Positions 44,152 to 60,219 of a stretch of 64,000 nucleotides of DNA are shown one piece after another. Positions within the stretch are counted from its first letter, which is position 1; every line of letters begins with the position of its first letter. This stretch comes from Microbulbifer thermotolerans. Its GTDB lineage: Bacteria; Pseudomonadota; Gammaproteobacteria; Pseudomonadales; Cellvibrionaceae. The position numbers and the translations under genes are program-made. The stretch spans positions 124,001 to 188,000 of the forward strand of contig NZ_FOKT01000008.1 in assembly GCF_900112305.1 (NCBI RefSeq). Reading direction: 5' to 3'. The notes below the pieces were generated by a model, which was given only the letters and a program-made list of their open reading frames with translations, was not told the origin of the DNA and ran no database searches.

Positions 44152-44693
44152 TGCTCACTCCTGGCTATCTGGCTGCAACGACCGGCAACGGGCCGGCCTC
44201 TATGCGATTCGTCATCAGTCATTCACGGCGGCCAAGTCCAGCCCGGCCCGTTTGTGATCACATTTTAGGGGCGGGTTCGGGCGGAGCGCAAGATCTGCCG
44301 GAACCGCACGCACTGGTTCCGCTGTTGGGTAAGAGGCACCGGTGACGGAGATAAAAGCTTTGCAATCAGCAGCTAGGGAGCCTCTGATTAATTCATTTCC
44401 TGGTGGCAGAGGTTCTTCGAGGGCGGATGTGAAGCTCAGGTGGTAGGACGGACATTTCGAAACCGTCGGATACAAGGCGGTATCCGACGGAGCTACAGGG
44501 AAATACTCGTGCGCTTTCGAAATGTCCGTCCTATTGTCTGAGCGCCCCGGAACCTACCACTAGGTTCACGCGAATTAATCAGAGGTTCCCTAGGGGGATA
44601 CAAGTGACAAGGGGACACCAGCGCCTTTTCGACAAGCGCATGGCTTGAGCGCCGAGAAACCAACTTCAGCGCCCACAGAGGCCAAGCAGCCCT
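44152..44693. other. Intergenic region holding mobile-element copy 2
   Basis: Besides the 213-bp element and its duplications at 44373-44593, the flanks are non-coding. The spuC-puuA promoter must lie in or downstream of the element (minus-strand sense). Confidence 0.6.
44377..44589 (+). mobile_element. MITE-like element, copy 2 (213 bp, target duplication CTAG)
   Basis: Same element as at 798-1010 and 60007-60219, flanked by CTAG at 44373-44376 and 44590-44593. Its ends are GGAGCCTCTGATTAATTC and GAATTAATCAGAGGTTCC. The inner arms are perfectly complementary: GGACGGACATTTCGAA (44446-44461) with TTCGAAATGTCCGTCC (44516-44531), enclosing CGTCGGATAC-AAGGCG-GTATCCGACG. This is the best preserved copy, so probably the youngest. 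No ORF. Confidence 0.88.
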
Positions 44694-45002
44694 TTAGACA
44701 CCACAGTCCAAGGCATCCAGCAACATATGGGTAACCAGACCGATCCCCAGGTAGCGCACCGGCTTCCAGGGCAGAAACATCATGGCACCGTAAAGAGAGA
44801 TCGGCAGCATCTTGTGTAACGGATGAAAGTTGATACTGCAGCGGTTAGGGTCGTACACGGGACTGGCGAGAAAATGGTCCAAATCGACCAGATTGGCGGC
44901 GAGCATGATCAACGCGGCCCTTTTCCAGTCCGTGCGGAAGAAAAACCAGGCAATGCCCACCGGCACAAGAAAGTGCAAGGCAATATGGAGATATGCAAAC
45001 AT
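44694..45002 (-). CDS. Small membrane protein, DUF6122-like
   Basis: 102 residues with three or four hydrophobic helices (LHIALHFLVPVGIAWFF, LIMLAANLVDLDHFLA, ISLYGAMMFLPW, YLGIGLVTHMLLDAL). Conserved-looking residues are LVDLDHFLASPVYDPNRCSINFHPLHK and THMLLDALDC, whose His/Asp pairs recall YdjM/LexA-regulated membrane hydrolases. It starts two bases after the GntR-family stop, so it is probably co-transcribed with the GntR and patatin-like genes. Function unknown. Confidence 0.75.
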   Translation of the reverse strand: MFAYLHIALHFLVPVGIAWFFFRTDWKRAALIMLAANLVDLDHFLASPVYDPNRCSINFHPLHKMLPISLYGAMMFLPWKPVRYLGIGLVTHMLLDALDCGV

Positions 45003-45004
45003 CG

Positions 45005-45676
45005 TTATAAAAGCTCTTCTGCAGAGATGGAGCCAAGCCCCTCCTCGATATCCTGACGGATGGCGGTGCGCACCCGCACGGGGTCACCAGCGGAGATGGC
45101 CTCGAGAAGATCCCGGTGCCGGTCGGGCAGTTCCTGCACGCCAAAGCGCCGGAAAACCAGGTGCTGCAGAGGCGCCGTCTGCAGCCACAGACTCTCTATC
45201 AAGGACAGGATGATATGCGGTCGACCTAGACGGTACAGGGTGAAGTGGAACTCCAAATTAGCGGTGACATACGCTTCCGTATCTCCATCCGCAAGCGCCG
45301 CACTGACCCGGTCGTCCAGACTGCGCAGCCGTTCCAGCTCGTCCGGGCCCACATAGGGCAGTGCCCGCTCCGCGGCCTGGCACTCGAGCGCCACCCGCGC
45401 CGCGCAAATCTCGGCCAGCTTTTCCGGGGTCATAGTGGGCACCGTCACCCGCCGCGTGTCCGACAACTCCAGCGCACGCTCGGAGGTAAGGCGGCGCAGC
45501 GCCTCGCGTACCGGCATGGGACTGCAGCCGAGCTCCGCGGCCAGCCCGCGAATCGTGACTGGATGGCCAGGCAAAAATTTTCCACGCAGAATAGCCTCCC
45601 GCACCTGGTGGTAGACCCACTCCTGGGTGGTACGGAATTCCTCCTGGGACACTCCCAGTTCCCGCGCACCACTCAT
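45005..45676 (-). CDS. GntR-family regulator with FCD domain
   Basis: 223 residues. The winged helix-turn-helix is at about 17-80 (VYHQVREAILRGKFLPG; IRGLAAELGCSPMPVREALRRLTSERAL). A FadR-C/FCD helical domain follows (FHFTLYRLGRPHIILSLIESLWLQTAPLQ; RHRDLLEAISAGD), with the metal-site His/Asp pattern of this family. Such regulators usually respond to an organic acid. It overlaps the upstream patatin-like gene by four bases, suggesting they share a function or are co-regulated. Confidence 0.88.
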   Translation of the reverse strand: MSGARELGVSQEEFRTTQEWVYHQVREAILRGKFLPGHPVTIRGLAAELGCSPMPVREALRRLTSERALELSDTRRVTVPTMTPEKLAEICAARVALECQAAERALPYVGPDELERLRSLDDRVSAALADGDTEAYVTANLEFHFTLYRLGRPHIILSLIESLWLQTAPLQHLVFRRFGVQELPDRHRDLLEAISAGDPVRVRTAIRQDIEEGLGSISAEELL

Positions 45677-46779
45677 ATGGCTGCCACCTGCGACAGCTTG
45701 TGAGGACTTTCATCTCGCCCAACTTCGATCAAGTGATCGGCGACGGCCCCCGTCTGCCAGAGCTCATAGAAGTCATCAGCCACCCGCCTGCCCATATCCA
45801 CCACGGTATTCCAGTACTTCAACCGTTCATCGGTGCCGAGCTGGTAGAAGTCGTTGCGGTCAGGAATCTTGCCGTAGGGCAAGCGAGCAACGAACGCCGG
45901 GGACGGCGCTACCAGTAATGTGTTTTCCATGGCATCCCCCCTGACGCGGCGCCAAGGCAGGCTTTTATCAAACCAACCTGGCACAAGAAAAGGGAAAAAG
46001 TGCGGATAAAAGACCAGCCCCTCCGGATGCTCGAAGCGCAGATCGAAGTGATAGTCGGTGATACCGCCATCGCGATAGTTGCCCGCTGGCGCCCCCCGTG
46101 GATTTTGCACCCCGGCCATTACCAGCGGAATCGAGCCACTGGCCAATACGGCATCGCAGACATTTTCCTCCGATAGCGCCGCATTGATCGTTCGCAGCTT
46201 GTCGAAACGAACACCGGCGGCGCTGCCCGAGTGGAATACCACCCTGTCCCAGAAGCAACTCAAGCTGTCTCTGGACAGGGCGTTTGCCAGCATTGAGGCA
46301 AGGAGCGCCGGCGCCAGCAGTGCGCGCCGCTCGCTGGCCAGAAGGCCGCGCCCTCGCACAGTGACAAAGTGGCTGTGCCAGAGGCGGTTTTCCGCGACTT
46401 CTCGTGCCCCTCCCCGCCCCAGAACTTCTTTAAGGATCTTCTCAGCGGCAGCGGTGATCTCCGCGGGCGCGGGTTTTGCGGAGGCATAAGTTTGGTTGAT
46501 ATAGCCGTACTCGAGGCGCTCCAGAGCGCCCAGGGAGTCCTCCATCGCATAGCACAGGTTGCGGAAACTGCCTATGGATGAACCAAGAGTTACGATGGGC
46601 CGACTGCGCCCCTTGAAAAACTCTCCTATAAGCACCCTGTCAAGCTGACTGATCACCAGCCACTTGGGCCCTCCGGAAGCCCCCACCAGAGTGGAGAACT
46701 GCTCCTGGCGCAACCCCTCCGCGCGGATGCGATCCGCTGCCGATTTACCGGCCAGTAATACGCAATTAGATCTTTTCAC
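45673..46779 (-). CDS. Patatin-like phospholipase family protein
   Basis: 368 residues. Patatin hallmarks are GASGGPKWLV at 33-42 (glycine-rich oxyanion stretch), the nucleophile elbow GSSIG at 66-70 (Ser68), and a catalytic DGG in NYRDGGITDYHFDL. The order matches cytoplasmic patatin-like lipid acyl hydrolases. It overlaps a GntR-type regulator by four bases and is followed by a small membrane protein. Substrate unknown; membrane lipid turnover or storage-lipid breakdown are possibilities. Confidence 0.8.
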   Translation of the reverse strand: MKRSNCVLLAGKSAADRIRAEGLRQEQFSTLVGASGGPKWLVISQLDRVLIGEFFKGRSRPIVTLGSSIGSFRNLCYAMEDSLGALERLEYGYINQTYASAKPAPAEITAAAEKILKEVLGRGGAREVAENRLWHSHFVTVRGRGLLASERRALLAPALLASMLANALSRDSLSCFWDRVVFHSGSAAGVRFDKLRTINAALSEENVCDAVLASGSIPLVMAGVQNPRGAPAGNYRDGGITDYHFDLRFEHPEGLVFYPHFFPFLVPGWFDKSLPWRRVRGDAMENTLLVAPSPAFVARLPYGKIPDRNDFYQLGTDERLKYWNTVVDMGRRVADDFYELWQTGAVADHLIEVGRDESPHKLSQVAAI

Positions 46780-46843
46780 TGCCTTTCTCTAACCTTGCGG
46801 ACGGGCACTGCGCCCGCCCCTGCAAGCACTCCTGCCGGTATGC

Positions 46844-47284
46844 TTACCACTCGCCGGTATTTTCCATGGATGCCCAGGGCTCCTGCGGTTCCAGCGGCTC
46901 ACCTTTCTGCAACAACTCAATGGAAATGCCGTCCGGGGAACGCACAAACGCCATATGACCGTCCCGCGGCGGACGGTTAATGGTGACACCCTTATCCATC
47001 AGCTGCTGACAAGTTGCGTAGATATTATCCACCCGGTAGGCCAAATGGCCAAAATTGCGTCCCCCGGTATAGGTTTCCGGGTCCCAGTTGTATGTGAGTT
47101 CAAGGCAGGGCGCCAGCTTCTCCCGCGCAGTTTCCGCATCGCCCGGAGCGGCCAGGAACACCAGCGTAAAGCGGCCCTTTTCGTAATCCTTGCGGCTGAC
47201 CTCCTGCAACCCCAGTTTGTTGCAATAAAACTCCAAAGACTCATCCAGATCCGAAACTCGCACCATCGTGTGCAGATATTCCAC
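46844..47284 (-). CDS. gloA: Lactoylglutathione lyase (glyoxalase I)
   Basis: About 146 residues, a metal-dependent vicinal-oxygen-chelate enzyme that isomerises the methylglyoxal-glutathione hemithioacetal. It carries [23 protein letters not shown] (metal His), [38 protein letters not shown] (metal His/Glu) and [15 protein letters not shown]. The GTG at 47284 is chosen because AGGAGT stands six bases before it; an ATG at 47311 would add nine residues. The C-terminal tail after LLQKG is slightly longer than in E. coli. Confidence 0.92.
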
Positions 47285-47363
47285 AGTACTACTCCTTCTA
47301 TCCGTCACCATCTAAAATGCCGGCAACAATTTATTACACTCGGTTTGCCGGCGCCAAAACCAA

Positions 47364-48527
47364 ATGTATCAAAAATACTATCGACAATTTTTACAATCCC
47401 AGTGCAGCCGCTTTGAAAACCCGCTGCACATGGCGTGCCACTCCCACCACTACTGGCCGGACGTGACCTTCGAAGCAGCGCAACAGTATTGGCGCGACGC
47501 CGCTATGCTGGCCGATGACAAGTGGCGCCTTCTGTTCGAGAAGAAGATCCCGGCCTGGCAAGCTGCGGTGGCGCGCACCCTGCGTTTACCAGCCCCCGAC
47601 CGGGTCGCTATAGCGCCCAATACCCACGAGTTGGTTTTCCGCTTGATCAGCGCCTTCGATTTGACCAAGCCGCTGCGCATTCTCACCACCGATGGCGAAT
47701 TCTACAGCTTCGCCCGTCAACTGCAGCGGTTGGAGGAGCTGCCAACGATCGAAGTCACCCGCGTTGCCAAAGAACCCTACGCTACCCTGGCCGCCCGCTT
47801 CGAGCGGGAACTCCAGCGTGGTGACTACCAACTGGCCTACGCGAGCTTGGTTTTCTTTGATTCCGGCGTCGAGTTTCCCCAACTGCTCAAGATCGCCGCG
47901 CGCAAACCGCAATCCACAGAATTTGTTATCGACGGCTACCACGCTTTTTTCGCCCTGCCCATTGATCTTAGCGAAGCCGCGGACAAGGTCTACTTTACCG
48001 CAGGTTCCTACAAATACCTCGGTGCCGGCGAAGGTTTGTGCTTTATGACCATTCCCGCCAACTGCCAACTGCGCCCCTTGAATACCGGCTGGTTCGCCGA
48101 ATTAACGGAGCTGGAAAACCGCAGTGGCAGAGTCCAGTTTGACGACAACTGGCTGCGTTTTGCCGGCGCCACCATGGATTACTCAGCCCTTTACAAAGGC
48201 CTTGCGGTCTTCGAGCTGTTCGAGCGCGAGGGCATCACCGTAGAAAAAATTCATTCCTATGTACTGGCCGCACAGCGGCGCTTTCTCACCGCGATGGACC
48301 AAGCCCATCACCCGCTTCTGAACCGGAGCAACCTCATCTGTCACGATCTGGAAAACGGCCACGGCCATTTCTTTGCCTTCGACTGCGGCAGCGGGGAAAA
48401 ATCGGAACAGCTGCAGCGGGAACTCGAATCCCGCGGGGTACTGTGCGACCGACGCCAGCGGTTACTGCGCCTGGGCTTTGCGATCTATCACGGCGAAGCG
48501 GAAGATTACCGGCGGGTATTCGGCTGA
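47364..48527 (+). CDS. Class V aminotransferase-fold PLP enzyme (kynureninase-like)
   Basis: 387 residues. It starts with NPLHMACHSHHYWPDVT, has the aspartate for PLP in FVIDGYHAFFALP, and the PLP lysine in YFTAGSYKYLGAGEGLCFM, a layout shared with kynureninases and related class V proteins. LRLGFAIYHGEAEDYRRVFG closes the small domain. No kynurenine-pathway neighbours are present, so the substrate is open. It is divergent from gloA with about 80 bases between. Confidence 0.75.
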   Translation: MYQKYYRQFLQSQCSRFENPLHMACHSHHYWPDVTFEAAQQYWRDAAMLADDKWRLLFEKKIPAWQAAVARTLRLPAPDRVAIAPNTHELVFRLISAFDLTKPLRILTTDGEFYSFARQLQRLEELPTIEVTRVAKEPYATLAARFERELQRGDYQLAYASLVFFDSGVEFPQLLKIAARKPQSTEFVIDGYHAFFALPIDLSEAADKVYFTAGSYKYLGAGEGLCFMTIPANCQLRPLNTGWFAELTELENRSGRVQFDDNWLRFAGATMDYSALYKGLAVFELFEREGITVEKIHSYVLAAQRRFLTAMDQAHHPLLNRSNLICHDLENGHGHFFAFDCGSGEKSEQLQRELESRGVLCDRRQRLLRLGFAIYHGEAEDYRRVFG

Positions 48528-48621
48528 CGCAACCCGCTCAGTGCCTGTTCAGCTAACGGAGGTTACTGTTCCGCCTTCTGTTTGTCACAAAATTTTCACT
48601 GCAACCCACAAGGAAAACGTC

Positions 48622-49332
48622 ATGAAGGTTGTCAAATTGTCCACCATCGCCCTGTTCACCCTGCTGGCCACTGCCTGCGGCGGCGACCGCTCCCCGGCCG
48701 AGCGCGGCACTCTCATTTCCATCTCCGCAACCGGCGAGGCAAGTCAAGCACCAGATGTAGCCAACATTTCGGCGGGCGTGGTCACTGAATCGGAAGACAG
48801 CGAGCAAGCTATGCGCGATAACGCCACGCAAATGGACAAACTGATAAAGGCGATCAAAAAAGCCGGCATCGACGAAAAAGATGTACAAACCAGTGGCATC
48901 AGCCTGTCGCCGCGTTATGACTACCAACAGGGCCGCAAACCCCAAATCACCGGCTACCAGGCTAGAAATACCGTCAGTATCAAGGTGCGCGATCTGCCGG
49001 CGCTGGGCGAGGTGCTGGACACATTGGCCGCAGCCGGCGCCAACCAAATCCACGGGCCCAGCCTGGAAATCGGCGAGCCGGAACCGGTGTTGGCCGAAGC
49101 GCGCAAGCGGGCACTGGACATAGCCCGCGCCCGAGCGGAAACCTACGCCAAAGCGCTAGACATGAGGGTGCGCCGTATCGTCAGCATTTCAGAACAAGGA
49201 GGCCGTATCCCCCAACCAATGCCGATGATGCGCGCGGAGATAGCGGCGGCAAAAGACAGCGCGGCCACACCGGTAGCCCCCGGAGAAACCACCCTGTCCG
49301 TCAACCTGGACCTGGTATTCGAATTGCGATAA
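48622..49332 (+). CDS. SIMPL-domain (DUF541) periplasmic protein
   Basis: About 236 residues. An N-terminal signal (LSTIALFTLLATACGGD) with a cysteine resembles a lipoprotein signal, although the lipobox is weak. The SIMPL domain follows: ISATGEASQAPDVANISAGVVTE, KAIKKAGIDEKDVQTSGISLSPRYDY, GYQARNTVSIKVRDL and ALDIARARAETYAKAL. YggE-type members are linked to oxidative-stress defence, others have unknown roles. ATG 48622 has AAGGA upstream. A stem CCGGAAGC/GCTTCCGG at 49339-49369 follows the gene without a T-run. Confidence 0.86.
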   Translation: MKVVKLSTIALFTLLATACGGDRSPAERGTLISISATGEASQAPDVANISAGVVTESEDSEQAMRDNATQMDKLIKAIKKAGIDEKDVQTSGISLSPRYDYQQGRKPQITGYQARNTVSIKVRDLPALGEVLDTLAAAGANQIHGPSLEIGEPEPVLAEARKRALDIARARAETYAKALDMRVRRIVSISEQGGRIPQPMPMMRAEIAAAKDSAATPVAPGETTLSVNLDLVFELR

Positions 49333-49404
49333 CTGTGGCCCGGAAGCGCTGATTACTCAGGGCTTCCGGACCTTATCAAGAAATATTGCAAGCGCGTAGT
49401 AGCG

Positions 49405-50724
49405 TCATGGGGCCTTGTAAATTTTTCCGTCCTTCATCACGAAGGCCACCCGCTGCAACTCAGTGATATCTTCCAACGGGTTACCACTTACCGCGACAAT
49501 ATCCGCTCTCTTACCTTCACTGATACTCCCCAGCTCATCCCCCATTTTTAGCAGCTGCGCCGCATTCCAGGTGGCGCTGCGGATGGCGTCTGCAGGGGTC
49601 ATACCAGCGGCCACCATCAGGGCGAATTCACGCGCATTGTCGCCGTGCCGGCTGACACCACTATCGGTACCAAAGGCAATTTTCACGCCGCGCTTGTAGG
49701 CATCGGCGAAGGTGTTTTGAAGCAGTGGGCCTATGGTGGACGCTTTTCCCCGCACCACCTCGGGGAAAAAACCGTCCAGCATAGCTTTCTGTGTAACCCA
49801 TTCACCCGCCAGTAGTGTGGGCACATACCAGACGTTGTGGCGCCGCATCAGCTCAATGGTTTCCCCATCCATATAGGTGCCGTGCTCAATGGAGTCGACA
49901 CCCGCGCGTATGGCGCGATCCATCCCTTCTTTGCCGTGGGCGTGTACCGCCACTGTAAAGCCGTAATCCCTCGCCGCGGCGACAATAGCCTCCAGTTCAT
50001 CCTGCATAAACTGCGGATTCTGGCCGCTCCTGGCCACACTCAATACACCACCGGTCGCGGTGATCTTGATCAAATCGGCACCGTCCTTATAGCGTTGCCG
50101 CACGGCCTCGCGAGCACTGACCGGACCGTTGATAACGCCATCCGCGGGGCCGGGACTACCCATCAGGTCGTAACGGAAGCTGTTGGTGGGGTCGGCGTGA
50201 CCACCGGTGGTAGCGATGGCCTTGCCAGCGGTAAAAATCCGCGGACCTTCAATGGTGCCGGCCTCTATCGCCTTGCGCAGACTGATGGTGACATTGTCGC
50301 TGTCACCCAGATCCCGCACCGTGGTAAACCCGGCCCGCAGAGTGCGCCGCGCCGTATCCACGGCACGCAAAGTGTAATCCGCTGGATTCCAGGTGAAGGG
50401 CTCCATATAGGTCCGCGGGCCATACTCATAGGCCAGATGGGTGTGCATATCCATCAGCCCCGGCAACACTGTGTAGTTGCGCAGATCCACCAAACGCTCC
50501 CGATCGCGCTTGGCAAACCCTTTCTGCACCGACTCGATACGGCCATCGACAATATGAATAGTGCGATTTTCCAACAGCTTGCCACTCTCGCTGTCGAACA
50601 GTTTTCCCGCATAGACCGCCGTAGATTCCGCCGATGCCAAGCTGCTACACAGGCCGCTCAATAAGGCCAGCAACAGAGCAGCAGCGCGGTTGCGGAAGTG
50701 GCCTCCTTTGGTATTTGTTGTCAT
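49405..50724 (-). CDS. Secreted amidohydrolase-family protein (imidazolonepropionase/prolidase-like)
   Basis: 439 residues. A signal peptide ([17 protein letters not shown]) is followed by the metal-dependent hydrolase core: [13 protein letters not shown] (HxH), [21 protein letters not shown] (the Lys position often carbamylated), [28 protein letters not shown] and [13 protein letters not shown]. These Xaa-Pro dipeptidase-like amidohydrolases are common exported enzymes of marine bacteria. The frame runs to 50724, with the signal peptide at its N-terminus. A decayed copy of the mobile element lies just upstream. Confidence 0.86.
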
Positions 50725-51028
50725 TGCCCCACCCGTTTAATCCCTCTTAAAGTCGTTCGTTCAGGCGAACCTCTGATTCTTTCGCGTGAGCGCTGTAGTC
50801 AGCTCTATGCGCTCTTCAAAAGCGCTCGAGTACTTTCCTTTAGCGCCGCCGGGCACCTTCTTGTATCAGGTATCAGGTAGTTTCGAAGTGCAGCCCATCA
50901 CCCGCACAGCTCATTTGACTTCCAACTATCTTTACCGCCGGGAAGCGAATGAATCAGAGCCCCTGACAAAGCGTACAATGTACCCCAAGCTTATGCTCAC
51001 CCCAAGAATCGCGTCGAGAGGAAACCCA
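50725..51028. other. Intergenic region containing a decayed mobile-element copy
   Basis: Between the divergent amidohydrolase and GST genes. Most of it is the degraded repeat described at 50766-50930. No ORF is supported. Confidence 0.6.
50766..50930 (-). repeat. Degenerate MITE relic (reverse orientation)
   Basis: Read on the plus strand, GAACCTCTGATTCTTTCGCG at 50767-50786 matches the reverse complement of the element's right end with two differences. AAAAGCGCTCGAGTACTTTC and following TAGCGCCGCCGGGCACC, CTTGTATC and TTTCGAAGTG align in order with the element interior in reverse orientation. About 20 bp is missing after the end repeat and no target duplication was recognised. An old, decayed copy. 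Confidence 0.7.
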
Positions 51029-51643
51029 ATGAAAATCTACGAGTTCGCCAGCGCGCCCAACTGTCGCCGGGTACGCATGTACCTGGCGGAAAAAGGCATC
51101 GACAATATCGAGTTTGTTCAAGTGGACATCACCAAGGGGGAAAATCTCACAGAGGATTACCGGCGCCGGGACATTAACGGCAAAGTTCCGGTGCTGGAAC
51201 TGGACGACGGTACCTGCATCGCGGAATCCGTCGCCATCCAGCGCTATTTCGAAGAGCTGTACCCAGAACCACCCCTCTTTGGCCGCGATCCCAAAGAGAA
51301 AGCACTGGTAGAAATGTGGCACCGCCGCGCCGATCTGAACATGATGATGAATATCGGCGGCTGCTTCCAGCACGGCACCGGCTTCTTTAAAGACCGCATG
51401 AAAGTATTCCCCGACTTTGGCGAAGAGTGCGGCAAGAAGGCACTGCAATTTTTTGACTTGCTGGACCACCATCTGGCGGATAACCAATACTTGGTAGGGG
51501 ATTACCTATCGGTAGCGGATCTCAGCATGCTGTGCATACTGGATTTCGGCAAAGTCGTGCAATTGCGGCCCGCCCCGGAAAAGTACCCTCACCTGGCGCG
51601 CTGGCATGGACAACTGAGCGCACGCCCCAGTGCCAAGGCTTGA
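51029..51643 (+). CDS. Glutathione S-transferase
   Basis: 204 residues. The thioredoxin-like N-terminal domain (MKIYEFASAPNCRRVRMYLAEKGI) has NGKVPVLELDDGTCIAESVAIQRYFEELYP, the cis-Pro and glutathione gamma-Glu contact region. The helical domain has VGDYLSVADLSMLCILDFGKV with the conserved N-capping D. ATG 51029 follows GAGAGGAAACCC; an in-frame start at 50786 lies inside the relic repeat and is rejected. A hairpin terminator follows. Substrate unknown. Confidence 0.9.
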   Translation: MKIYEFASAPNCRRVRMYLAEKGIDNIEFVQVDITKGENLTEDYRRRDINGKVPVLELDDGTCIAESVAIQRYFEELYPEPPLFGRDPKEKALVEMWHRRADLNMMMNIGGCFQHGTGFFKDRMKVFPDFGEECGKKALQFFDLLDHHLADNQYLVGDYLSVADLSMLCILDFGKVVQLRPAPEKYPHLARWHGQLSARPSAKA

Positions 51644-51691
51644 GCCGCCAAATCAACTTTGCACCTACAGCAACTGATTTCGGGGCGCCCG

Positions 51692-51730
51692 CCGGGAAAC
51701 CGGCCGGGGCCCCTTGCTTTTACCAAGCGC
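51692..51730 (+). terminator. Terminator after the GST gene
   Basis: GGGGCGCCCGCCGG, GAAA loop, CCGGCCGGGGCCCC (12 of 14 paired), then TTGCTTTT. It lies in the gap between the convergent GST and M16 peptidase genes and could serve both. Confidence 0.75.
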
Positions 51731-51743: not shown

Positions 51744-54560
51744 CTAATCGCCGGGAGACAGCACTTCCACCGGCCCTATATTCAGTGCCTCCACTTCTTT
51801 TTGTATCCGACTCAGGTCTCCGATGATTACCCAGGTAAATTGATCTGGTTGCAGGAACTGCCTTGCAGAGGACTCCACCTCATCCACCGTCAGTACCTCC
51901 ACCCGCTGTGGATATTCGGAGATATACTCCGGCGGCAAGCCCTTCTCCACCTGCCAGGCAATACTCGACAGCAGCTGCCCCTTGGTCTGGAAGCGAGCAC
52001 TCTGCTTGAGTACTTCATCGTCTCTGTAGTCCGCCAACTCCCGCTCAGTGACCGGCTTATCGCCGAGGAAGCTGCGGTATTCCTTCAACAATTCAAGAAT
52101 GGCCGGGGCCGTCTTGTCGGTCTGCACAGGTGCAAAGAGGATATAGGGGCGCTGCCCTTCTGTGTCCAGAGAAACAGCGCGGGCACCGTAAGTCCAGTGT
52201 TTGTCTTCACGGAGGTTCATATTCACCCGTGAAGTAAATTTGCCGGCGATTACCGCCGCCATCGCCTCAAAAGCTTCCGCTCCCTGCGGCTGCCAAGGCG
52301 GCATCACCAGGCCGGCCATAATATAGCTCTGTTCGGCACCGGGACGGTCCACCAAATAGATCCTGGTCTTTTGCGGCCGCTTCACCGTCGGCACCTCGAT
52401 ACGCGCCAATTCAGTTTTTGGCGCCCGCCAATCCGCCAGTGCACGGTTCAGCGACGCCTGGATCTCCTCCCGGGTGACATCACCGACAACGATCAGAACC
52501 GCGTTGTCCGGGCGCACCCAGGTATTGTGGAAGCGCACCAAGTCATCGCGCTCAATTGCTTCAATTCCCTCAACAGTGCCGGAACCGGTCAACGGTGCCC
52601 CGTAGGGGTGCTTGTCGCCAAACAACAGCGGCGGCAGGGTGCGCAACGCCAGTCCCTGCGGCTGCGCCTTCTCCTGGGCAATAGCATCGAGCCGGTTGGA
52701 CTTAACCCGAGCAAGATCTTTCTCCGGGAACAGCGGTTCCAGCACTACCTTGGCAAACAGCTCGAGAGAGGGCTCCAGCTGATTTTTGAGGGCACTCAAA
52801 GTGATGTTGTTGTAATCCAATCCACTACCGGTGCCAATGCTGGCCCCCAGCTCCTCTTGGCGCGCGCTGAACGCCAGCGCATCCAGGTCTCCCGCACCCT
52901 CGCTCAACATGCTTGCGGCCATGGAAGCCAGACCCGGCTTGTCGCCATCGGCAGCCGCGCCGCTTTTGAATTGCAGGTTCATCAGCACGACCGGCGTATC
53001 GTGGCGTTCCGCCAGCACCACTTTCAGGCCATTATCGAGTGTGAAGGACTCCTGCTTGGGCAACTCCAGCTCCACCTTTTTATCCACCGGCGGTAAACGG
53101 CTGCGATCGACCTTTTTTTCCGAGGTGGCATACTTTTCCCGCGGGCGAATGATCAAGGTATAGCTTTCCGGTGTGAGCCAACGGGCGGCAACAGCTTGAA
53201 CTTCCTGCGCGGAGACACCAGCGTAGTGCTGCAGGCCTTCTATCAGCGCACCGGGGTCACCGTAGTAAAACTCGGACTGAGCGAGGATATCGCTTTTGCC
53301 TCCGAAGCCGCCGATTTTTTCCAGTCCTTTTACCAAGCTGGCAAATTCACTCTGCTTGATACGGCGCAATTCCCGGGCATCCACACCATTATTTACGAAA
53401 GCCCAAAGCGACTCATCCAGCACTGCCTCCACTTTTTCTACCGACTGACCGGGTTTGACATCCACAATAATCATCAGCTGGCCCGCCAGCTGACGCCCGT
53501 AATAAAAGGCGCTGACGCTGGTAGCCAGTTGCTCATCGCGCACCAGGCGGCGGTATAACAGCGAGTTTTTGCGGTTCGCCAGCAGAGAAGTGATCAGGTC
53601 CAAAGCATCCTCTTCCTCGCTGCCGACCGCCGGAACATTCCACACTTTGTAGATGCGGGTCTGCGGCACCTGATCAAACATCTCTTCGCGCTTATTGGGC
53701 TGCACTGGCAATTCCCAGTTTTTCAGTCGCGGCTGCACGCCACTGCTGGGAATATTCCCGAAGTATTGCCGCGCCTTGGCCATGGCTTCTTCGACAGTGA
53801 TATCACCTGCGATCACCAGTATTGCGTTGGCTGGCTGATAGTAGTCCCGGAACCACTGCTTCACATCTTCGAGGCTGGCGTTGTCCAGATCCTCCATGGA
53901 GCCGATGGTTGTCCACGAATAGGGGTGGTACGGCGGGAAGGTGCCACTGGCAATGCGCTCGAAAGCCTGACCATATGGCGTATTTTCGCGCTGACGTTTT
54001 TCGTTTTTGACTACACCGCGCTGCTCATCCAGCGTCTCCTGGGTAATCGCCCCCACGAAGTGGCCCATCCGGTCAGACTCCATCCACAGTGCCATATCCA
54101 GGGCCCCGGTGGGAACTGTCTCGAAATAGTTGGTGCGGTCATTATTGGTGGTGCCGTTCATATCCGTGGCACCGGAGCGCTGAAAGGGTTCGAAGTACTC
54201 GCCGGGATAGTTTTCCGAGCCGTTAAACATCAGGTGCTCAAATAGGTGTGCAAAGCCCGTCTTGCCCGGCACTTCATCCTTTGAGCCCACCTTATACCAG
54301 ATATTGACCGCCACCACTGGCGCCTTGTGGTCCTCGTGCACAATTACTGTCAGACCGTTCTCCAGCTTCTCCTTATAAAACGGAATATCCAATTCGGGCG
54401 CCGCCACATAGGCGGGGTTGTCGGACTGCGCGCGGGCGCCATCCACCGACTCGCCAGCCACAGCCTGTACACGATGGCGCCCCTCATCCGGCTTACCGCA
54501 GGCACCGAGAGAGAGCGCTCCTAGGGACAGGAAAATGATAAGAATGCTGCGCAGTGTCAT
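51744..54560 (-). CDS. Secreted M16-family zinc metallopeptidase (two-domain, pitrilysin-like)
   Basis: 938 residues. The signal IIFLSLGALSLGAC is a lipoprotein signal with LGAC as lipobox. The N-terminal half is the active peptidase: HLFEHLMFNGSENYPG contains the inverted zinc motif HxxEH, and the distal Glu lies in the VVKNEKRQRENTPYGQ helix. The second half repeats the fold without the motif (SFTLDNGLKVVLAERHDTPVV) and should form the closing half of the chamber. Such enzymes degrade short peptides in the periplasm. It is convergent with GST. Confidence 0.9.
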   Translation of the reverse strand: MTLRSILIIFLSLGALSLGACGKPDEGRHRVQAVAGESVDGARAQSDNPAYVAAPELDIPFYKEKLENGLTVIVHEDHKAPVVAVNIWYKVGSKDEVPGKTGFAHLFEHLMFNGSENYPGEYFEPFQRSGATDMNGTTNNDRTNYFETVPTGALDMALWMESDRMGHFVGAITQETLDEQRGVVKNEKRQRENTPYGQAFERIASGTFPPYHPYSWTTIGSMEDLDNASLEDVKQWFRDYYQPANAILVIAGDITVEEAMAKARQYFGNIPSSGVQPRLKNWELPVQPNKREEMFDQVPQTRIYKVWNVPAVGSEEEDALDLITSLLANRKNSLLYRRLVRDEQLATSVSAFYYGRQLAGQLMIIVDVKPGQSVEKVEAVLDESLWAFVNNGVDARELRRIKQSEFASLVKGLEKIGGFGGKSDILAQSEFYYGDPGALIEGLQHYAGVSAQEVQAVAARWLTPESYTLIIRPREKYATSEKKVDRSRLPPVDKKVELELPKQESFTLDNGLKVVLAERHDTPVVLMNLQFKSGAAADGDKPGLASMAASMLSEGAGDLDALAFSARQEELGASIGTGSGLDYNNITLSALKNQLEPSLELFAKVVLEPLFPEKDLARVKSNRLDAIAQEKAQPQGLALRTLPPLLFGDKHPYGAPLTGSGTVEGIEAIERDDLVRFHNTWVRPDNAVLIVVGDVTREEIQASLNRALADWRAPKTELARIEVPTVKRPQKTRIYLVDRPGAEQSYIMAGLVMPPWQPQGAEAFEAMAAVIAGKFTSRVNMNLREDKHWTYGARAVSLDTEGQRPYILFAPVQTDKTAPAILELLKEYRSFLGDKPVTERELADYRDDEVLKQSARFQTKGQLLSSIAWQVEKGLPPEYISEYPQRVEVLTVDEVESSARQFLQPDQFTWVIIGDLSRIQKEVEALNIGPVEVLSPGD

Positions 54561-54673
54561 AGATCGGATATCTCCAGAGGTAGTTCGGGCGGCCGCCGGC
54601 TTCCGTTACAGCGGACTCTAGCACTTCAGTCAGCGTAGCACCGGGCATTTGGCCATATTGCGGTGTATCAGAC

Positions 54674-54697
54674 AAAAAAACGGGCACCGAAGTGCCC
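54674..54697 (-). terminator. Terminator after the leucine-type dehydrogenase
   Basis: GGGCAC-CGAA-GTGCCC at 54682-54697, followed on the minus strand by TTTTTTT (54674-54680). It sits between the dehydrogenase stop and the M16 peptidase start, ending the dehydrogenase transcript. Confidence 0.85.
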
Positions 54698-54779
54698 AAA
54701 TAAATACCTCAAAGAGAAGCGATGACGCAAATCGCTCCAGGGGAGAGAGTGACTCAACGGACTTATGCCCGCTCAATAA

Positions 54780-55856
54780 TCAAGCGGCCGCCGGGTCAAT
54801 GTTTTTTGACGCGTCCTCGTGACCAAAACGCTCTTCCGCGATGCGGTCGGCCACGTGCGCAGTGGTCTCACCTGTCTCGGCCGCGCGCTGGAAAATTTCC
54901 TGCATGGTGCTGCCGATGGTTTCAATATGTGCCTTCACACGCGCGGGGTCGTAGTCGCCCTGCTGCTGGTAATAAACATCGATAATGCCGCCGGCGTTGA
55001 TGACATAATCCGGCGCATACAGAATGCCCTTCTCACCGAGGGCCGCAGCGTGACGCATCTCCGTCAGCTGATTATTTGCCGCGCCAGCCACTGCCCCCAC
55101 TTTTAAGCGGGCAATGGTATCGTCATTCAGTACGGCACCCAGGGCACAGGGGGCGAAGAGATCCACGTCCAGGTCGAAGATCTCATCTGCACTGACCGCC
55201 GTTGCGCCCAACTCGCTGACAGCGCGGTCGATATTGTCCTGGAAGATATCTGTAACAAAGAGTTCAGCGCCCGCGTCCTTCAACAGCTTGGCCAGACGGA
55301 AGCCCACATTGCCCACCCCCTGCAGGGAGACCTTGAGGCCACTCAAATCACTTTTGCCCCAACGGTGCTCCACCGCCGCCTTCAAGCCGACAAATACACC
55401 GTAAGCGGTAGAGGGCGATGGATCACCGCCGTGCTCCGACTCGGCGATCAGGCCGGAAACATACTGAGTTCGCTCACCGATGATATGCATATCCGCGACG
55501 CTGGTGCCGGAATCCTCAGCGGTGATATAGCGGCCGCCCAACGTGTTGATGAAGTCTCCCATAGCGCGCAGCAGCTCAGGGGTCTTCTCCTTGCGCGGAT
55601 CTCCGATGATGACCGCCTTGCCGCCCCCGAGTTTCAGCCCGGCCATAGCGGATTTATAAGTCATACCTCTGGAGAGGCGCAGTACGTCGTTCAGCGCTTC
55701 ACCGTCATCCGCATAGGGCCACATACGGCAGCCGCCCAGCGAGGGTCCCAAATTGGTGTTGTGCACCGCAATAATCGCCTTCAGGCCGCTTTTGGCGTCC
55801 TGGCAGAAAGCCACCTGTTCGTGCTTGTCATAGGCGGGATGGGAAAAAATACTCAT
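54780..55856 (-). CDS. Leucine/phenylalanine-type amino-acid dehydrogenase
   Basis: 358 residues of the Glu/Leu/Phe/Val dehydrogenase family, converting a branched or aromatic amino acid to its 2-oxo acid with NAD. It has [36 protein letters not shown] (catalytic Lys), [14 protein letters not shown] (catalytic Asp), [16 protein letters not shown] (Rossmann motif) and [11 protein letters not shown]. Length and Leu-dehydrogenase-type motifs favour leucine, but substrate class is not certain. A matching T-run terminator follows. Confidence 0.9.
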
Positions 55857-56207
55857 TTACTGTTCCTCTCCGGAGACCGGTTCCACTGCTGGGGAACAAC
55901 CACAGTCTTTATCTGTTTTATAAGAAGCTAAGATTATATCCACCTGGGGCAGATAGAGTTTGCAAATTTTGCTCGCCAACATCAAATCAAAGCGAAAACA
56001 TCACGCAATAACAGCCAATTTAGGATAAACAACCACACGGAAACGCTCTTTGCGGCCCAGTCATCAAACCGCCCCTGGCGTCCCCGCGACGGCGGCAGGC
56101 CGCTACCAATGCGCCGTACGGAGCGAAAACCGGCGCTGGCGCGTTACCCCGTTTCACTGGGGTCTGGTAGAATCCGCGCGCAAAATCGACCCGCAGAGAC
56201 TGTTTCA

Positions 56208-58154
56208 ATGCTGAATGCCGACGCGCTCCAAAAACTCAAACAACTGAAATCCGACATCCGCTCCAACAAGGAATTCGCCGAAGGGCGGGTACGTGGCAGC
56301 AACGGCAAGTTTGGTTTTGTCGTGCTGGACGACGGGCGCGAAGCCTTCCTGCCGCCGGCAGAAATGGAGCGTGTGTTTCCCGGTGACCGGGTGCGCGTCA
56401 GCCTTACCGAAGAGGACAAAGGCAAGCTGTCAGCCGAACTGGACGAACTGCTGGAAAGTGAGCTCAAATTCCTTGTCGGCCAGTATGTACAGCGGGGCCA
56501 GGGGCACTTTGTGCAGCCCAGTGAAGTGGGGCTGAACCGCTGGATCTTTCTGCCGCCCAAAGCCCGTGGCAAGGCGCAGCCGGGGGAGTTCATCGCCTGC
56601 AAGATCAGCCGCCACCCGTTCCGGGACGGCAAGGCCCAGGCCAAGGTGGAAACCGTCATCGGCAAACCGGATATGCCCGGTATTGAACACGCCTACGTGG
56701 TCGCCCAACACCAGTTGCCGGAGCGCTTCAGCCCGGCGGCAATGAAGCAGGCGGAAGAAATCAAAGGGCGAATCGAGGCAATCACCGCCGAGCGCACAGA
56801 TCTCTCGGAGCTGGGCTTCGTTACCATCGACGCCCCGACCACACTGGATATGGATGACGCACTTGCCGTCAGCAAGCGCGACAGTGGCTGGTCCCTACAC
56901 ATTGCCATCGCCGATCCCTCCTGCCTGATCGAAGAAGGTAGCCCGCTGGATAAAGAGGCATTCAAGCGCGCCCACAGCCAATACCTGCCCGGCGAAACCC
57001 TGCCGATGCTGCCCAACGATCTGTGTGAAAACCTCTTTTCACTGGTGCAGGGCGAGCTGCGCCCCGCTCTGGTGCTGCATATCGATATCGAAAGCGACGG
57101 CACCATCGGCGACAGCCGCTATGAGTTCGCGGCCATCCGCTCCCGCCACAAACTCAGCTACGAGCAGGTAGCAAACTTTATCGAAGGCGATGACAGCGCC
57201 GTGCCCGAGGACCAAAAGGAAAGCCTGCGCAACCTGTCCGACCTCTGCACAGCGCGTACGGCCTACCGCGCCAGCCACTCGCTGACTATGGAGGAGCGCC
57301 CCGACTACGCCATCTTCCTGAACGAACAGCGCAAAATCGAACGCATCGAGAAACAGGAGCGCAACGTCGCCCAGCGCATGGTGGAAGAGGCAATGCTCGC
57401 CGCCAATATCTCCGTCGGGCGCCAGCTCGCAGCGATGCAAAAGGGCTGCTTCTCCGTGCATTTAGGTTTCCGCGACGAACGCATGGGTGAAATCAGAAGC
57501 CTGCTCAAGGAAACCCTGCCGGAATACGCAGACAAAGATCTGCACCAACTGGACAATTACCTGGCGCTGGTCAAGCATCTGGAGAACCACAGCGAACCGC
57601 AAATGCAGGACCTGCTCGCGGTGCTCAAGCGCATGCTGCGCCCCGGCCAGCTCGCCAACAAACCCGGCGCTCACTTGGGCCTGGGCCTGGAAGCCTACGC
57701 CACTGTCACTTCACCGATCCGCAAATACAACGACCTGCACAACCACCGGGTACTGCGTGCCGCCGCGCAGAGTCAGCAGGCCAAGGCTCTGAGTGACGAG
57801 CAAGTCGAGGCCCTTCAAGACAGCCTGATCCGCGGCCGCCAGGCCAACCGCGCCCTGGAGCAGTGGCTCTACGCACAGTATCTGCAAGACAAGACAGGCC
57901 AGGTCTTCGAAGGAAAAATTACCCAGGTCAACGGCGCAGGCCTCGGCGTAAGGCTGGATGAAAATGGCATTGACGGCTTTGTTCGCCTAAATGGCGACAA
58001 GAAAAACCTGCCCGAGTTTGATGGCAAATACCTCAAACTGACCCACAACAAAGTCACTTACAAACTCGACCAGCCAGTGACCGTGAAGGTAAGCGCTGTC
58101 GATATCGACAAGCGCCGTATTGCCCTGGAACTGGTCGCCACCGAAAACGCATAA
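56208..58154 (+). CDS. rnb: Exoribonuclease II-family 3'-5' ribonuclease
   Basis: 648 residues. An N-terminal cold-shock/OB domain (GRVRGSNGKFGFVVLDDGREAFLPPAEMERVFPGD) precedes the catalytic RNB domain, TIDAPTTLDMDDALAV, which supplies the four magnesium-binding aspartates. YATVTSPIRKYNDLHNHR forms the RNA-contacting end. A C-terminal S1 domain follows (GQVFEGKITQVNGAGLGVRLDENGIDGFVRL). ATG 56208 (MLNADALQKL) is chosen; the frame is open further upstream but without conserved sequence. RNase II rather than RNase R length. Confidence 0.9.
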   Translation: MLNADALQKLKQLKSDIRSNKEFAEGRVRGSNGKFGFVVLDDGREAFLPPAEMERVFPGDRVRVSLTEEDKGKLSAELDELLESELKFLVGQYVQRGQGHFVQPSEVGLNRWIFLPPKARGKAQPGEFIACKISRHPFRDGKAQAKVETVIGKPDMPGIEHAYVVAQHQLPERFSPAAMKQAEEIKGRIEAITAERTDLSELGFVTIDAPTTLDMDDALAVSKRDSGWSLHIAIADPSCLIEEGSPLDKEAFKRAHSQYLPGETLPMLPNDLCENLFSLVQGELRPALVLHIDIESDGTIGDSRYEFAAIRSRHKLSYEQVANFIEGDDSAVPEDQKESLRNLSDLCTARTAYRASHSLTMEERPDYAIFLNEQRKIERIEKQERNVAQRMVEEAMLAANISVGRQLAAMQKGCFSVHLGFRDERMGEIRSLLKETLPEYADKDLHQLDNYLALVKHLENHSEPQMQDLLAVLKRMLRPGQLANKPGAHLGLGLEAYATVTSPIRKYNDLHNHRVLRAAAQSQQAKALSDEQVEALQDSLIRGRQANRALEQWLYAQYLQDKTGQVFEGKITQVNGAGLGVRLDENGIDGFVRLNGDKKNLPEFDGKYLKLTHNKVTYKLDQPVTVKVSAVDIDKRRIALELVATENA

Positions 58155-58297
58155 GCCTCCAGCAGAACCCCGGTGCGCCAATGCGGTTGCACCGGGACTG
58201 CAGAACTCGGTAAACGGGCACAATTCCGGTCCCGGGCCAAAAGCCCGGCGATAACCCAGACCGCTGCATCCGGCGGTCCAGATAAAAAGGAAGCACT

Positions 58298-59770
58298 ATG
58301 TCATCCATTGCCGAACTATCCCCCAAACCTCTGTGGAAACACTTCTCCAAACTCTGCGCGATTCCCCACCCTTCCAAACACGAAGAAAAAGTGGTCGCCC
58401 ACGTACTCGACTTCTGTAGGGAGCGCGGGCTGGAAGTGAAGCAGGACGAAATCGGCAACGTCATTATTAAAAAACCTGCCACGCCGGGAATGGAGGACCG
58501 TAAAACTCTTGCCCTGCAGGGGCACCTGGACATGGTGCCGCAGAAAAACGCCGACTCCGACCACGACTTTCTGAAAGACCCAATTCGCCCGCGCATTGAC
58601 GGTGAGTGGGTTACCGCCACCGGCACCACTCTGGGCGCTGACAACGGCATCGGCGTGGCCGCCATACTCGCTCTTTTGGAGAGCACCGATATTCCCCACC
58701 CCGCGCTCGAAGCCCTGCTCACTATCGACGAAGAGGCGGGCATGACCGGAGCCAAGCATCTGCAACCGGGCCACTTCGAAGCAGAACTGCTGCTGAACCT
58801 GGATGCGGAGGGTGAGGGAGAACTGTATATCGGTTGTGCCGGCGGCGTGGATATCAATGCACTGCTGCCCTACTCAGCGGAACCGGTGCCTGAGGGGCAC
58901 TTGGCCTTCGAACTCAGCGTTCGCGGGTTGAGAGGCGGTCACTCCGGCCTGGACATAGATAAAGGACGGGGCAACGCGAATAAAATAGCCAACCGCATTC
59001 TCGATGCGGCCAATCGCGCTATCGCCGATCTGCGTATCGCCGCTCTCAATGGCGGCAGCCTGCGCAACGCCATACCGCGGGAGTCATTCAGTGTTGTGAC
59101 CGTACCGGCGGACAAGGCTGCCTTGCTAGTGCAAATCACCCAGCGGGAAACACTGGACATCATTGCCGAATTCGACAACGAAAGCGGGCTGACCATTTCA
59201 CTGGATGCGGCGGAAATGCCCGCTTCTGTGATGGACCGCGACACCCAGCAAAAATTGATCCGCGCCATCCGCTGCTGCCCCAACGGCGTGGAACGCCCGA
59301 GCACCGCGCTGGAAGGCATTGCCGACACTTCCAACAACCTCGCCCGGGTAGTGACGGAAACTGCGGACGGAAAAAGCCAAGTGCACATCCAGAGCCTGGT
59401 GCGCAGCCTGTCCGACAGCGCCCGAGACCAGCACGGCCTCAATGTCGCCGCCGCCTTTGAACTGGCCGGCGCCGAAACCTCGCTGGACAACGCCTACCCC
59501 GGCTGGAAGCCGAATCCCCAGTCGCCACTGCTGGCAGTAATGAAAAGTATCTACCGGGAAATGACCGGCGAAGAGCCGGAGGTAAAAGTCATTCACGCCG
59601 GCCTTGAGTGCGGCCTCCTCGCCAAACCCTACCCGCACTGGGATATGGTCTCCTTCGGCCCCACCATCCGCCGGGCCCACTCACCAGAGGAGCGGGTGCA
59701 TATTCAGAGCGTGGCTAACTTTTGGGAATATCTCTTGCAAGTGGTGCAAGCCATTCCCGCCAAAGACTGA
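58298..59770 (+). CDS. pepD: Cytosolic nonspecific dipeptidase (aminoacyl-histidine dipeptidase)
   Basis: 490 residues, M20 zinc peptidase. Metal ligands are seen in LQGHLDMVPQ (His, Asp), TTLGADNGIG (bridging Asp) and TIDEEAGMTGA (catalytic and metal Glu). IGCAGGVDINA, GLRGGHSGLDIDKGRGNA and IHAGLECGLLAKPYPHWDMVSFGP are typical PepD segments. It degrades dipeptides in the cytoplasm. Preceded by AAAAGGA; followed by a strong hairpin terminator and then by a cluster of mobile-element remnants. Confidence 0.94.
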   Translation: MSSIAELSPKPLWKHFSKLCAIPHPSKHEEKVVAHVLDFCRERGLEVKQDEIGNVIIKKPATPGMEDRKTLALQGHLDMVPQKNADSDHDFLKDPIRPRIDGEWVTATGTTLGADNGIGVAAILALLESTDIPHPALEALLTIDEEAGMTGAKHLQPGHFEAELLLNLDAEGEGELYIGCAGGVDINALLPYSAEPVPEGHLAFELSVRGLRGGHSGLDIDKGRGNANKIANRILDAANRAIADLRIAALNGGSLRNAIPRESFSVVTVPADKAALLVQITQRETLDIIAEFDNESGLTISLDAAEMPASVMDRDTQQKLIRAIRCCPNGVERPSTALEGIADTSNNLARVVTETADGKSQVHIQSLVRSLSDSARDQHGLNVAAAFELAGAETSLDNAYPGWKPNPQSPLLAVMKSIYREMTGEEPEVKVIHAGLECGLLAKPYPHWDMVSFGPTIRRAHSPEERVHIQSVANFWEYLLQVVQAIPAKD

Positions 59771-59788
59771 TCGGAGCACAAGCAATAA

Positions 59789-59818
59789 GTCCAGCGGAAA
59801 GAATCCGCTGGACCTTTT
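59789..59818 (+). terminator. pepD terminator
   Basis: GTCCAGCGGA (59789-59798) and TCCGCTGGAC (59804-59813) form a perfect 10-bp stem, followed by CTTTTGCATTT. It lies 19 bases after the pepD stop. Confidence 0.85.
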
Positions 59819-60006
59819 GCATTTCCCCTGACAACAACGGTGGTTCTGATAAATTTGCGTCCTGCGATTTTTCAGCCCCGGATAAGTCTCTCAAGCAATG
59901 GGATAGCCCCCCAAAGCGGTGGATACAAGGAAGTGCCTCATTGTCTGAGCACACTAAATTCGCTACAGTATTCTAAAAATAAATCAGAGCCTCTTTAATA
60001 AATTAA
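59819..60006. other. Intergenic region with element relic
   Basis: No gene. Contains a decayed copy of the 213-bp element (59888-59997) immediately before the intact copy 3. Confidence 0.5.
59888..59997 (+). repeat. Degenerate MITE relic next to copy 3
   Basis: TCTCAAGCAATGGGATAGCC resembles the element's GCTCAGGCGATAGGACGGCC. GGATACAAGG, CATTGTCTGAGC and AAATCAGAGCCTC match later element positions in order, but the centre is deleted and the end repeat is mutated. Probably an old copy; copy 3 lies beside it. Alignment by eye. Confidence 0.6.
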
Positions 60007-60219
60007 GGAATCTCTGATTAATTCGCTTCCTGACGGTAAAAATTCTTTGGAGCTAGATGAGAAGCTCAGGTGACAGGATGGCCATTTCGAAACCGACGGA
60101 TACAGGGATGTATCCGTCGGAGCTACAGGGAATTACTCGTGCGTTTTCGAAATGGCCATCCTATTGCCTGAGCCCCACGGAACTAACCAAAGCGTCCACG
60201 CGAATTAATCAGAAGTTCC
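60007..60219 (+). mobile_element. MITE-like element, copy 3 (213 bp, target duplication TTAA)
   Basis: Same 213-bp element, flanked by TTAA at 60003-60006 and 60220-60223. Ends are GGAATCTCTGATTAATTC and GAATTAATCAGAAGTTCC. It is the most diverged of the three full copies, yet its inner arms are perfectly complementary (GGATGGCCATTTCGAA with TTCGAAATGGCCATCC; CGACGGATAC with GTATCCGTCG). The right duplication ends 28 bases before the start codon of a small lipoprotein gene, so that gene's promoter or leader should lie within it. Confidence 0.85.

What the first reader, a model, noticed from the sequence alone, without database searches (positions are those of the whole stretch)
44446..60180. 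Compensatory base changes preserve the element's hairpins
In copy 2 the inner arms are GGACGGACATTTCGAA/TTCGAAATGTCCGTCC; in copy 3 they are GGATGGCCATTTCGAA/TTCGAAATGGCCATCC. Both are perfectly paired although two positions differ. The central hairpin also covaries: CGTCGGATAC/GTATCCGACG versus CGACGGATAC/GTATCCGTCG. Copy 1 has mismatches at these places. Three paired changes imply that folding, as RNA or single-stranded DNA, matters for function or for movement, beyond what simple end-recognition requires.
Basis: seen in the sequence. Interest (0 to 1): 0.68.

Follow-up and report, generated by a model that had tools for sequence, protein, structure and literature searches.

The report
Ancient folding repeat captured by MITE

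Summary
The paired differences are real and correctly placed, but three copies cannot carry the conclusion. The window lies in a Microbulbifer genome with about 150 or more copies of a 213-bp MITE with IS5-type ends and YTAR duplications. Inside sits a three-stem core homologous to the Yersinia repeat YPAL/RU-2. Among this genome's copies no pair covaries beyond descent (0 of 88) and core mismatches are strand-symmetric (G.T 174, A.C 152): a decaying passenger. In relatives the picture reverses. The core, without these ends, occurs in 22 of 23 other Microbulbifer genomes and 73 of 368 other class genomes. There the significant covarying pairs all lie in the structure (21 of 21; 15 of 15 in a set chosen without regard to the arms), and G.T outnumbers A.C 32 to 2 in that set: one folded strand, RNA or ssDNA, is selected. 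At orthologous sites copies stay paired, partly by compensatory change, partly by replacement of whole copies. Folding matters for the ancestral family, not demonstrably here.

The parts
798..1010 (+). MITE copy 1 (213 bp; left end 798-815, right end 993-1010; target duplication TTAG at 794-797 and 1011-1014); arms with mismatches
   Evidence: coordinates read off the sequence
44377..44589 (+). MITE copy 2 (213 bp; left end 44377-44394, right end 44572-44589; target duplication CTAG at 44373-44376 and 44590-44593)
   Evidence: coordinates read off the sequence
44434..44543 (+). YPAL-like core of copy 2: outer stem 44434-44461/44516-44543, hairpin 2 44463-44473/44480-44490, conserved hairpin 3 TACAGGGAAATA 44494-44505
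60007..60219 (+). MITE copy 3 (213 bp; left end 60007-60024, right end 60202-60219; target duplication TTAA at 60003-60006 and 60220-60223)
   Evidence: coordinates read off the sequence
60064..60173 (+). YPAL-like core of copy 3: outer stem 60064-60091/60146-60173, hairpin 2 60093-60103/60110-60120

Best explanation
Each copy is a non-autonomous 213-bp element with 18-bp inverted ends of an IS5-type insertion sequence, moved in trans by an IS5-family transposase into YTAR sites (ends and duplications shown; the moving enzyme inferred). Between the ends it carries a captured copy of an older structured intergenic repeat, homologous to the Yersinia YPAL/RU-2 repeat: a long outer stem enclosing two small hairpins with CAGGGA-type loops. 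In other Microbulbifer and elsewhere in Gammaproteobacteria this core exists without the IS5 ends, from none or a few to at least 98 copies per genome, and the fold of one strand (the CAGGGA strand) is under selection. In the present genome, amplified as MITE cargo, the core is no longer detectably constrained; the paired differences between copies 2 and 3 descend from different source sub-families. For the ancestral core the most likely state is a top-strand fold that acts in place (RNA, or single-stranded DNA bound by a protein), since copies at orthologous sites keep their pairing; what binds it is unknown.
For: MITE: 340 end-motif matches with at most 2 mismatches against 0 for the reversed pattern; 151 model matches with only 150 of 1582 candidates scored; 136 of 157 copies with both ends, 85 of 136 with identical 4-bp flanks, 76 of those 85 YTAR, 83 of 136 exactly 213 bp. 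An IS with ends matching 16 of 18 positions lies at two contig ends; its C-terminal 51 aa match NF033581 IS5 family, 5.8e-12. Capture: the MITE ends (at most 4 of 18 mismatches, within 150 nt) flank 0 of 153 relatives' and class cores and 0 of 96 motif-selected cores, against 145 of 157 own copies with at least one end; 130 of 151 intact cores here have both ends, 15 one, 6 none. Homology with YPAL: RU-2 hits a sequence-only profile of the cores at 1.7e-12, with no hit listed for 200 shuffles; Rfam Ysr224 matches at up to 30.4 bits. Selection in the family. In place: at 24 orthologous pairs of copies, 136 changes from one Watson-Crick pair to another; per pair of copies 6.3 both-sided and 2.1 one-sided changes in 29 arm pairs, at four-fold divergence 0.33. 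Relaxation here: core G.T 174, A.C 152, p 0.24.
Against: The pooled relatives' figure (G.T 103, A.C 31; Fisher against own copies p 2e-6) comes mostly from copies found with the structure model, which favours G.U, and counts a few copies twice; the fair sets are smaller (32:2; 24:4 in loci found by sequence alone). In the fair set 58 mismatches are of the transversion kind, more than G.T, clustered at arm positions 15, 20 and 23. 7 of 103 motif-selected places were dropped because no arm alignment was found. Of the 24 orthologous pairs only 13 have 5 or fewer both-sided changes; the other 11 (8 to 13) are as different as unrelated copies (mean 8.85, sd 2.84), so in-place persistence is shown for about half, and the pairs share loci. 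The covariation test is my own version of the R-scape idea with 20 simulations. No transcript data. Elements show no orientation preference to co-directional genes (19 sense, 17 antisense, by a crude ORF picker). No complete autonomous IS with these ends was seen: two copies end at contig ends and a third end-match borders decayed sequence.
Confidence: 0.78

Rival explanations
1. One reading: in this genome the MITE's own fold is selected, for function or for movement.
For: Cores in the window fold with z -6 to -11; the conserved wobble columns 68-163 and 69-162 persist (T.G 122 and G.T 138 of 157).
Against: 0 of 88 structural pairs significant on 142 copies; G.T 174 to A.C 152; only 29 of 157 copies free of mismatch in the 28-pair arm outside the wobble columns; non-Watson-Crick fraction in the core (8.8%) close to that in the ends (10.4%).
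Confidence: 0.08
2. Arm-to-arm templated correction (hairpin-directed strand switching) keeps the arms complementary in the bare family, without selection on the fold.
For: All four Watson-Crick pairs occur at arm positions 12 and 13 with 96 of 96 paired; double changes outnumber single ones at orthologous sites; 11 of 24 orthologous pairs changed at 8-13 of 29 arm pairs.
Against: Correction alone is strand-symmetric and predicts equal G.T and A.C, but 32:2 was seen and 24:4 in loci selected by sequence. At the SulP-Usp locus two G.T pairs and no A.C are seen among the 10 of 11 sequences tabulated (two of them are one record held twice). At strongly changed sites leader and tail differ too, pointing to replacement of whole copies.
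Confidence: 0.15
3. The bare core acts in host mRNA (terminator, stabiliser or processing site), as proposed for YPAL.
For: Median 68 nt from the stop codon of the upstream gene in co-directional settings (crude ORF picker); RNA-like wobble tolerance; a related family is annotated as an sRNA (Ysr224).
Against: Element orientation is 19 sense to 17 antisense. In the motif-selected set the asymmetry stays on the element's own strand in copies antisense to the flanking genes (G.T 4, A.C 0) as in sense (5:0) and convergent (8:0) ones, with divergent 1:1 and unassigned 14:1; in the structure-selected set it is 4:2 sense, 22:11 antisense, 31:10 convergent, 19:4 divergent. Counts are small.
Confidence: 0.25
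4. The folded top strand is a single-stranded DNA substrate of a Y1/HUH enzyme or a reverse-transcription intermediate needed for movement.
For: Strand-specific fold in several gene settings; inverted pairs of cores, as in REPINs; variable target duplications are described for YPAL (PMC2229807, passages).
Against: Element-rich genomes G011 and G021 have no PF01797 match at E<=0.001; element-rich G002, G007, G011, G012, G014, G016, G019, G021 and G023 have no PF00078 match; 1 of 29 Y1 loci has a core-model match nearby, a weak one of 39.8 bits; copies at about half of the orthologous sites stay folded without replacement.
Confidence: 0.12

Closest known systems
YPAL / RU-2 (Yersinia palindromic sequence, 168 bp)
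   Same: Homologous central core (45.6 bits, 1.7e-12); RU-2 folds into the same layout; intergenic, many copies; YPAL was already predicted to be structured (PMC2267715, passages). One Microbulbifer copy has a duplicated terminator at both sides (L117, 20 identical nt), as described for YPAL targets (PMC2229807, passages).
   Different: Here the core sits inside IS5-type ends with 4-bp YTAR duplications; arms unrelated; relatives without these ends are found over the class, not only in Yersinia and Erwinia.
IS5-derived MITEs (IS5 family, YTAR targets)
   Same: Short, non-coding, inverted ends shared with an IS5-family IS, 4-bp YTAR duplication, over 100 copies.
   Different: Interior is not a deleted IS but an unrelated captured structured repeat.
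Rfam RF02770 Ysr224 (Yersinia sRNA 224)
   Same: Matches cores in 3 of 5 loci tested (E 0.0016 to 0.33; 4.1e-5 on a shorter stretch).
   Different: Best 30.4 bits, below the gathering score 70; matches the strand opposite to the one that the G.T asymmetry marks; no match in the own-genome locus L001.
REP / REPIN with RAYT
   Same: Dispersed extragenic palindromes, often in inverted pairs.
   Different: Much larger fold; Y1 genes neither adjacent nor always present. The short GTAG- or CGTC-tagged hairpin that defines REPs (PMC3733652, abstract) was not searched for.

Membership tests
IS5-group MITE | Terminal inverted repeats shared with an IS5-family IS of the same genome | tested here: met
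   IS ends GGAACCTCTGATCAACTC, 16 of 18 identical to the MITE end; C-terminal fragment NF033581 5.8e-12, 45.6 bits (below that model's cut-off of 140 for a whole protein, the fragment being 51 aa)
IS5-group MITE | 4-bp YTAR target duplication | tested here: met
   76 of 85 identical flanks are YTAR; left flank YTAR in 105 of 136
IS5-group MITE | Mobilised in trans by the transposase | not testable with these tools
   needs a transposition assay
YPAL/RU-2 | Sequence homology of the core | tested here: met
YPAL/RU-2 | Target duplication of 3-26 bp at or beside dyad symmetry (described in PMC2229807) | tested here: inconclusive
   5 of 153 relatives' copies (a few counted twice) have a shared flank of 12 nt or more, two of them in one tandem array (L177), against 0.13% of shuffled flank pairs; one clear terminator duplication, L117
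YPAL/RU-2 | Own termini, not those of an IS | tested here: not met
   the window copies have IS5-type ends; the 249 relatives' cores examined lack them (some copies counted twice)
Rfam Ysr224 | Gathering score 70 | tested here: not met
   best 30.4 bits
REP/REPIN | Associated RAYT (Y1) gene | tested here: not met
Structured RNA | Covariation beyond phylogeny | tested here: met
   met in relatives; not met in this genome's MITE copies

The most novel reading that the evidence does not exclude
The bare core is a large, so far unnamed family of structured intergenic elements spread over Gammaproteobacteria, of which YPAL and Ysr224 are the Yersinia branch. Many of its copies are maintained in place by selection on one folded strand, whatever the direction of neighbouring genes; stems vary freely while pairing is kept, and copies are often replaced whole. 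In this Microbulbifer an IS5-type MITE captured one copy and multiplied it, releasing it from the constraint, a natural experiment in structural decay.
Probability: 0.4. Interest if true: 0.8.

Novelty: new variant of a known kind. Interest (0 to 1): 0.62.

Why it matters
A repeat described in Yersinia turns out to be part of a class-wide structured family with very clean covariation, and its G.T/A.C asymmetry gives a test of which strand folds. The captured copies serve as an internal control: same core, same genus, constraint gone. It also warns that paired changes among a few transposon copies can be inherited sub-family differences.

Tried and rejected
Rfam at gathering thresholds: only a tRNA in the window. 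BLAST of one bare core (L103) against plasmids and phages: no match. RAYT/Y1 as mover: not associated. Reverse transcriptase as mover: absent from many element-rich genomes. Long direct duplications around bare copies: rare. Empty sites by comparing named species: intergenic regions too diverged. Bare cores inside this genome as an internal control: few and mostly weak, one well paired (L260:809-932). Core words in papers found only RU-2 and one unrelated paper. Two papers name Ysr224 (listing only). De Gregorio 2006 on YPAL is not held, so its content is taken from PMC2229807 and PMC2759123 (passages). Also seen: PMC2267715 (passages), PMC5193452 (passages), PMC3733652 (abstract and outline). 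That the wider family is unreported rests on the listings in an open-licence library only.

Rows dropped before counts: one search left out hits at locus ends and counted 157 of 180 unique hits (at least 150 of 219 columns; some of the 157 are tandem units or cores without ends); one search used 142 of them. One search left out L096, L109-L112 and L165-L180 (divergent or weaker matches, several from the same genus) and identical sequences (68 used). One search failed to tabulate L313. One search dropped 7 of 103 (fewer than 18 of 30 Watson-Crick pairs) and counted arm positions 1-26; positions 1-29 give G.T 49, A.C 4, transversion type 76. In the first class-wide run only 4 of 14 significant pairs were marked as structural, because the reference row was out of register; one search shows all 14 on the two stem diagonals. 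Sets count a few copies twice, where two loci overlap.
Full report
OBSERVATION. Copies 2 and 3 differ at two arm pairs and one hairpin pair and stay paired; copy 1 has mismatches there. The cores fold with z-scores of -11.0, -11.2 and -6.3.

WHAT THE ELEMENT IS. The window lies in a 3.92-Mb genome in 30 contigs. The genus is Microbulbifer, from the named records with the closest homologues of a protein beside a core in a same-genus genome; the genome itself is not named by any search. The end motif occurs 340 times with up to 2 mismatches, against none for the reversed pattern. A sequence-only model finds 151 matches with 150 of 1582 candidates scored, so the true number may be higher. Of 157 non-redundant copies covering at least 150 of 219 columns, 136 have both ends. 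Of these 136, 85 have identical 4-bp flanks, 76 of the 85 being YTAR, and 83 are exactly 213 bp. An insertion sequence with ends identical at 16 of 18 positions lies at two contig ends, and its C-terminal 51 residues match IS5-family transposases. This is a MITE of the IS5 kind.

A CAPTURED CORE. In relatives none of the listed matches of the same model spans both ends (capped list), and the end motifs are absent within 150 nt of all 249 relatives' cores examined, some of them counted twice. A covariance model of the core (R2) matches in 23 of 24 genus genomes searched, own included; eight of the 24 have 12 matches or fewer, and at most 98 candidates per genome were scored. Class-wide it matches in 74 of 369 genomes, own included, in 67 of 272 genera (9 scored per genome). 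In this genome 130 of 151 intact cores sit between both MITE ends, 15 have one end and 6 none. The core is homologous to the Yersinia repeat YPAL/RU-2: the published 168-nt RU-2 hits a sequence-only profile of the cores at E 1.7e-12, and no hit is listed for any of 200 shuffles. Rfam's Ysr224 matches cores at up to 30.4 bits, below its gathering score.

IS FOLDING SELECTED? IN THIS GENOME, NOT DETECTABLY. The third pair is T.T in 86 of 157 copies. In the core, G.T (174) and A.C (152) mismatches are about equally common (p 0.24), as in neutral decay; the MITE ends give 77:56 (p 0.08).

IN THE BARE FAMILY, CLEARLY. On 33 cores (two from the window) 35 of 42 pairs show both-sided changes; the covariation score is 0.621 against 0.187 in shuffles and at most 0.128 when slid. 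On 68 genus sequences aligned by sequence alone, 21 of 21 significant pairs are structural. On 55 class-wide sequences all 14 significant pairs lie on the two stem diagonals. The fairest set was chosen only by the hairpin-3 motif in three Microbulbifer genomes: 103 places, 96 with arms, 7 dropped. There 15 of 15 significant pairs are structural. Arm positions 12 and 13 show all four Watson-Crick pairs with 96 of 96 paired. Outside two conserved wobble positions, positions 1-26 hold 2212 Watson-Crick pairs, 32 G.T, 2 A.C (p 7e-8) and 58 transversion-type mismatches, many of the last at positions 15, 20 and 23. Loci selected by the sequence-only model R1 give G.T 24 to A.C 4. The pooled relatives give 103 to 31, but most of those were chosen with the structure model, which favours G.U. 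A G.T on one strand is an A.C on the other, so one folded strand is what selection sees.

WHERE IT ACTS. Elements show no orientation preference to co-directional genes (19 sense, 17 antisense in relatives; 34 and 46 for the MITE copies; crude ORF picker). In the motif-selected set G.T to A.C is 5:0 in sense, 4:0 in antisense, 8:0 in convergent, 1:1 in divergent and 14:1 in unassigned settings (small counts). Of copies in the three genomes, 24 pairs lie at orthologous sites with both flanks matching. They differ by 6.3 both-sided and 2.1 one-sided changes per 29 arm pairs, at a four-fold site divergence of 0.33, while unrelated copies differ by 8.85 both-sided changes. Counting the rows (recounted), 13 of 24 have 5 or fewer both-sided changes, 40 in all, against 28 one-sided ones; neutral arms would have accumulated many more one-sided changes (inference). 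The other 11 have 8 to 13 both-sided changes and look like replacement of whole copies by conversion or re-insertion. An example is L388/L452, with 12 pairs changed at four-fold divergence 0.10. At the SulP-Usp gap, where all seven named Microbulbifer records carry a core (two carry a different sub-type), three of 29 arm pairs show both-sided changes, with two G.T and no A.C among the 10 of 11 sequences tabulated, of which one record is present twice.

MECHANISM. Shown: IS5-type ends, YTAR duplications, capture, loss of detectable constraint here, strand-specific constraint in relatives, persistence at about half of the orthologous sites examined. Inferred: movement by an IS5-type transposase; that the folded form is RNA or protein-bound single-stranded DNA. 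Y1 transposases and reverse transcriptases are not consistently present in element-rich genomes, so neither is needed for the copies to be maintained.

STANDING. MITEs with IS5 ends are known, and YPAL is known in Yersinia and Erwinia (PMC2229807 and PMC2759123, passages) and was predicted to be structured (PMC2267715, passages). New here, as far as the listings go, are the class-wide family, its strand-specific constraint, and its capture and release inside a MITE. On checking, the number of genus genomes with a match was corrected upward by one, and the probability of the most novel reading was lowered from 0.45 to 0.40 because 11 of 24 orthologous pairs look replaced rather than persisting.

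Noticed in passing
G000:C14:16321-16878 (L271): Three core units of the MITE in tandem, about 171 bp apart; the first carries the left end, the last the right end.
   Followed up: no
L177:1268-1856 (G046): Three YPAL-like cores in tandem, about 234 bp apart, in a genome of another family of the order.
   Followed up: no
L314:2754-2933, L319:4468-4704: Other inserts sit inside the hairpin loops of bare cores, as if the loops were preferred targets.
   Followed up: no
L220, L223-L225, L235, L245, L252: Bare cores often come in inverted pairs: divergent in one Microbulbifer (G001), convergent at a constant spacing of about 321 bp in another genome (G344).
   Followed up: partly
L327:1630-2250 (G000:C5): Remnant of an IS end beside a decayed reading frame that resembles a Y1-type transposase (the resemblance is recalled, not searched).
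   Followed up: no
A3 columns 16-115 and 17-114: Conserved tandem U.G/G.U pair in the long stem, flanked by frequent purine-purine mismatches: a possible protein-recognition site.
   Followed up: partly
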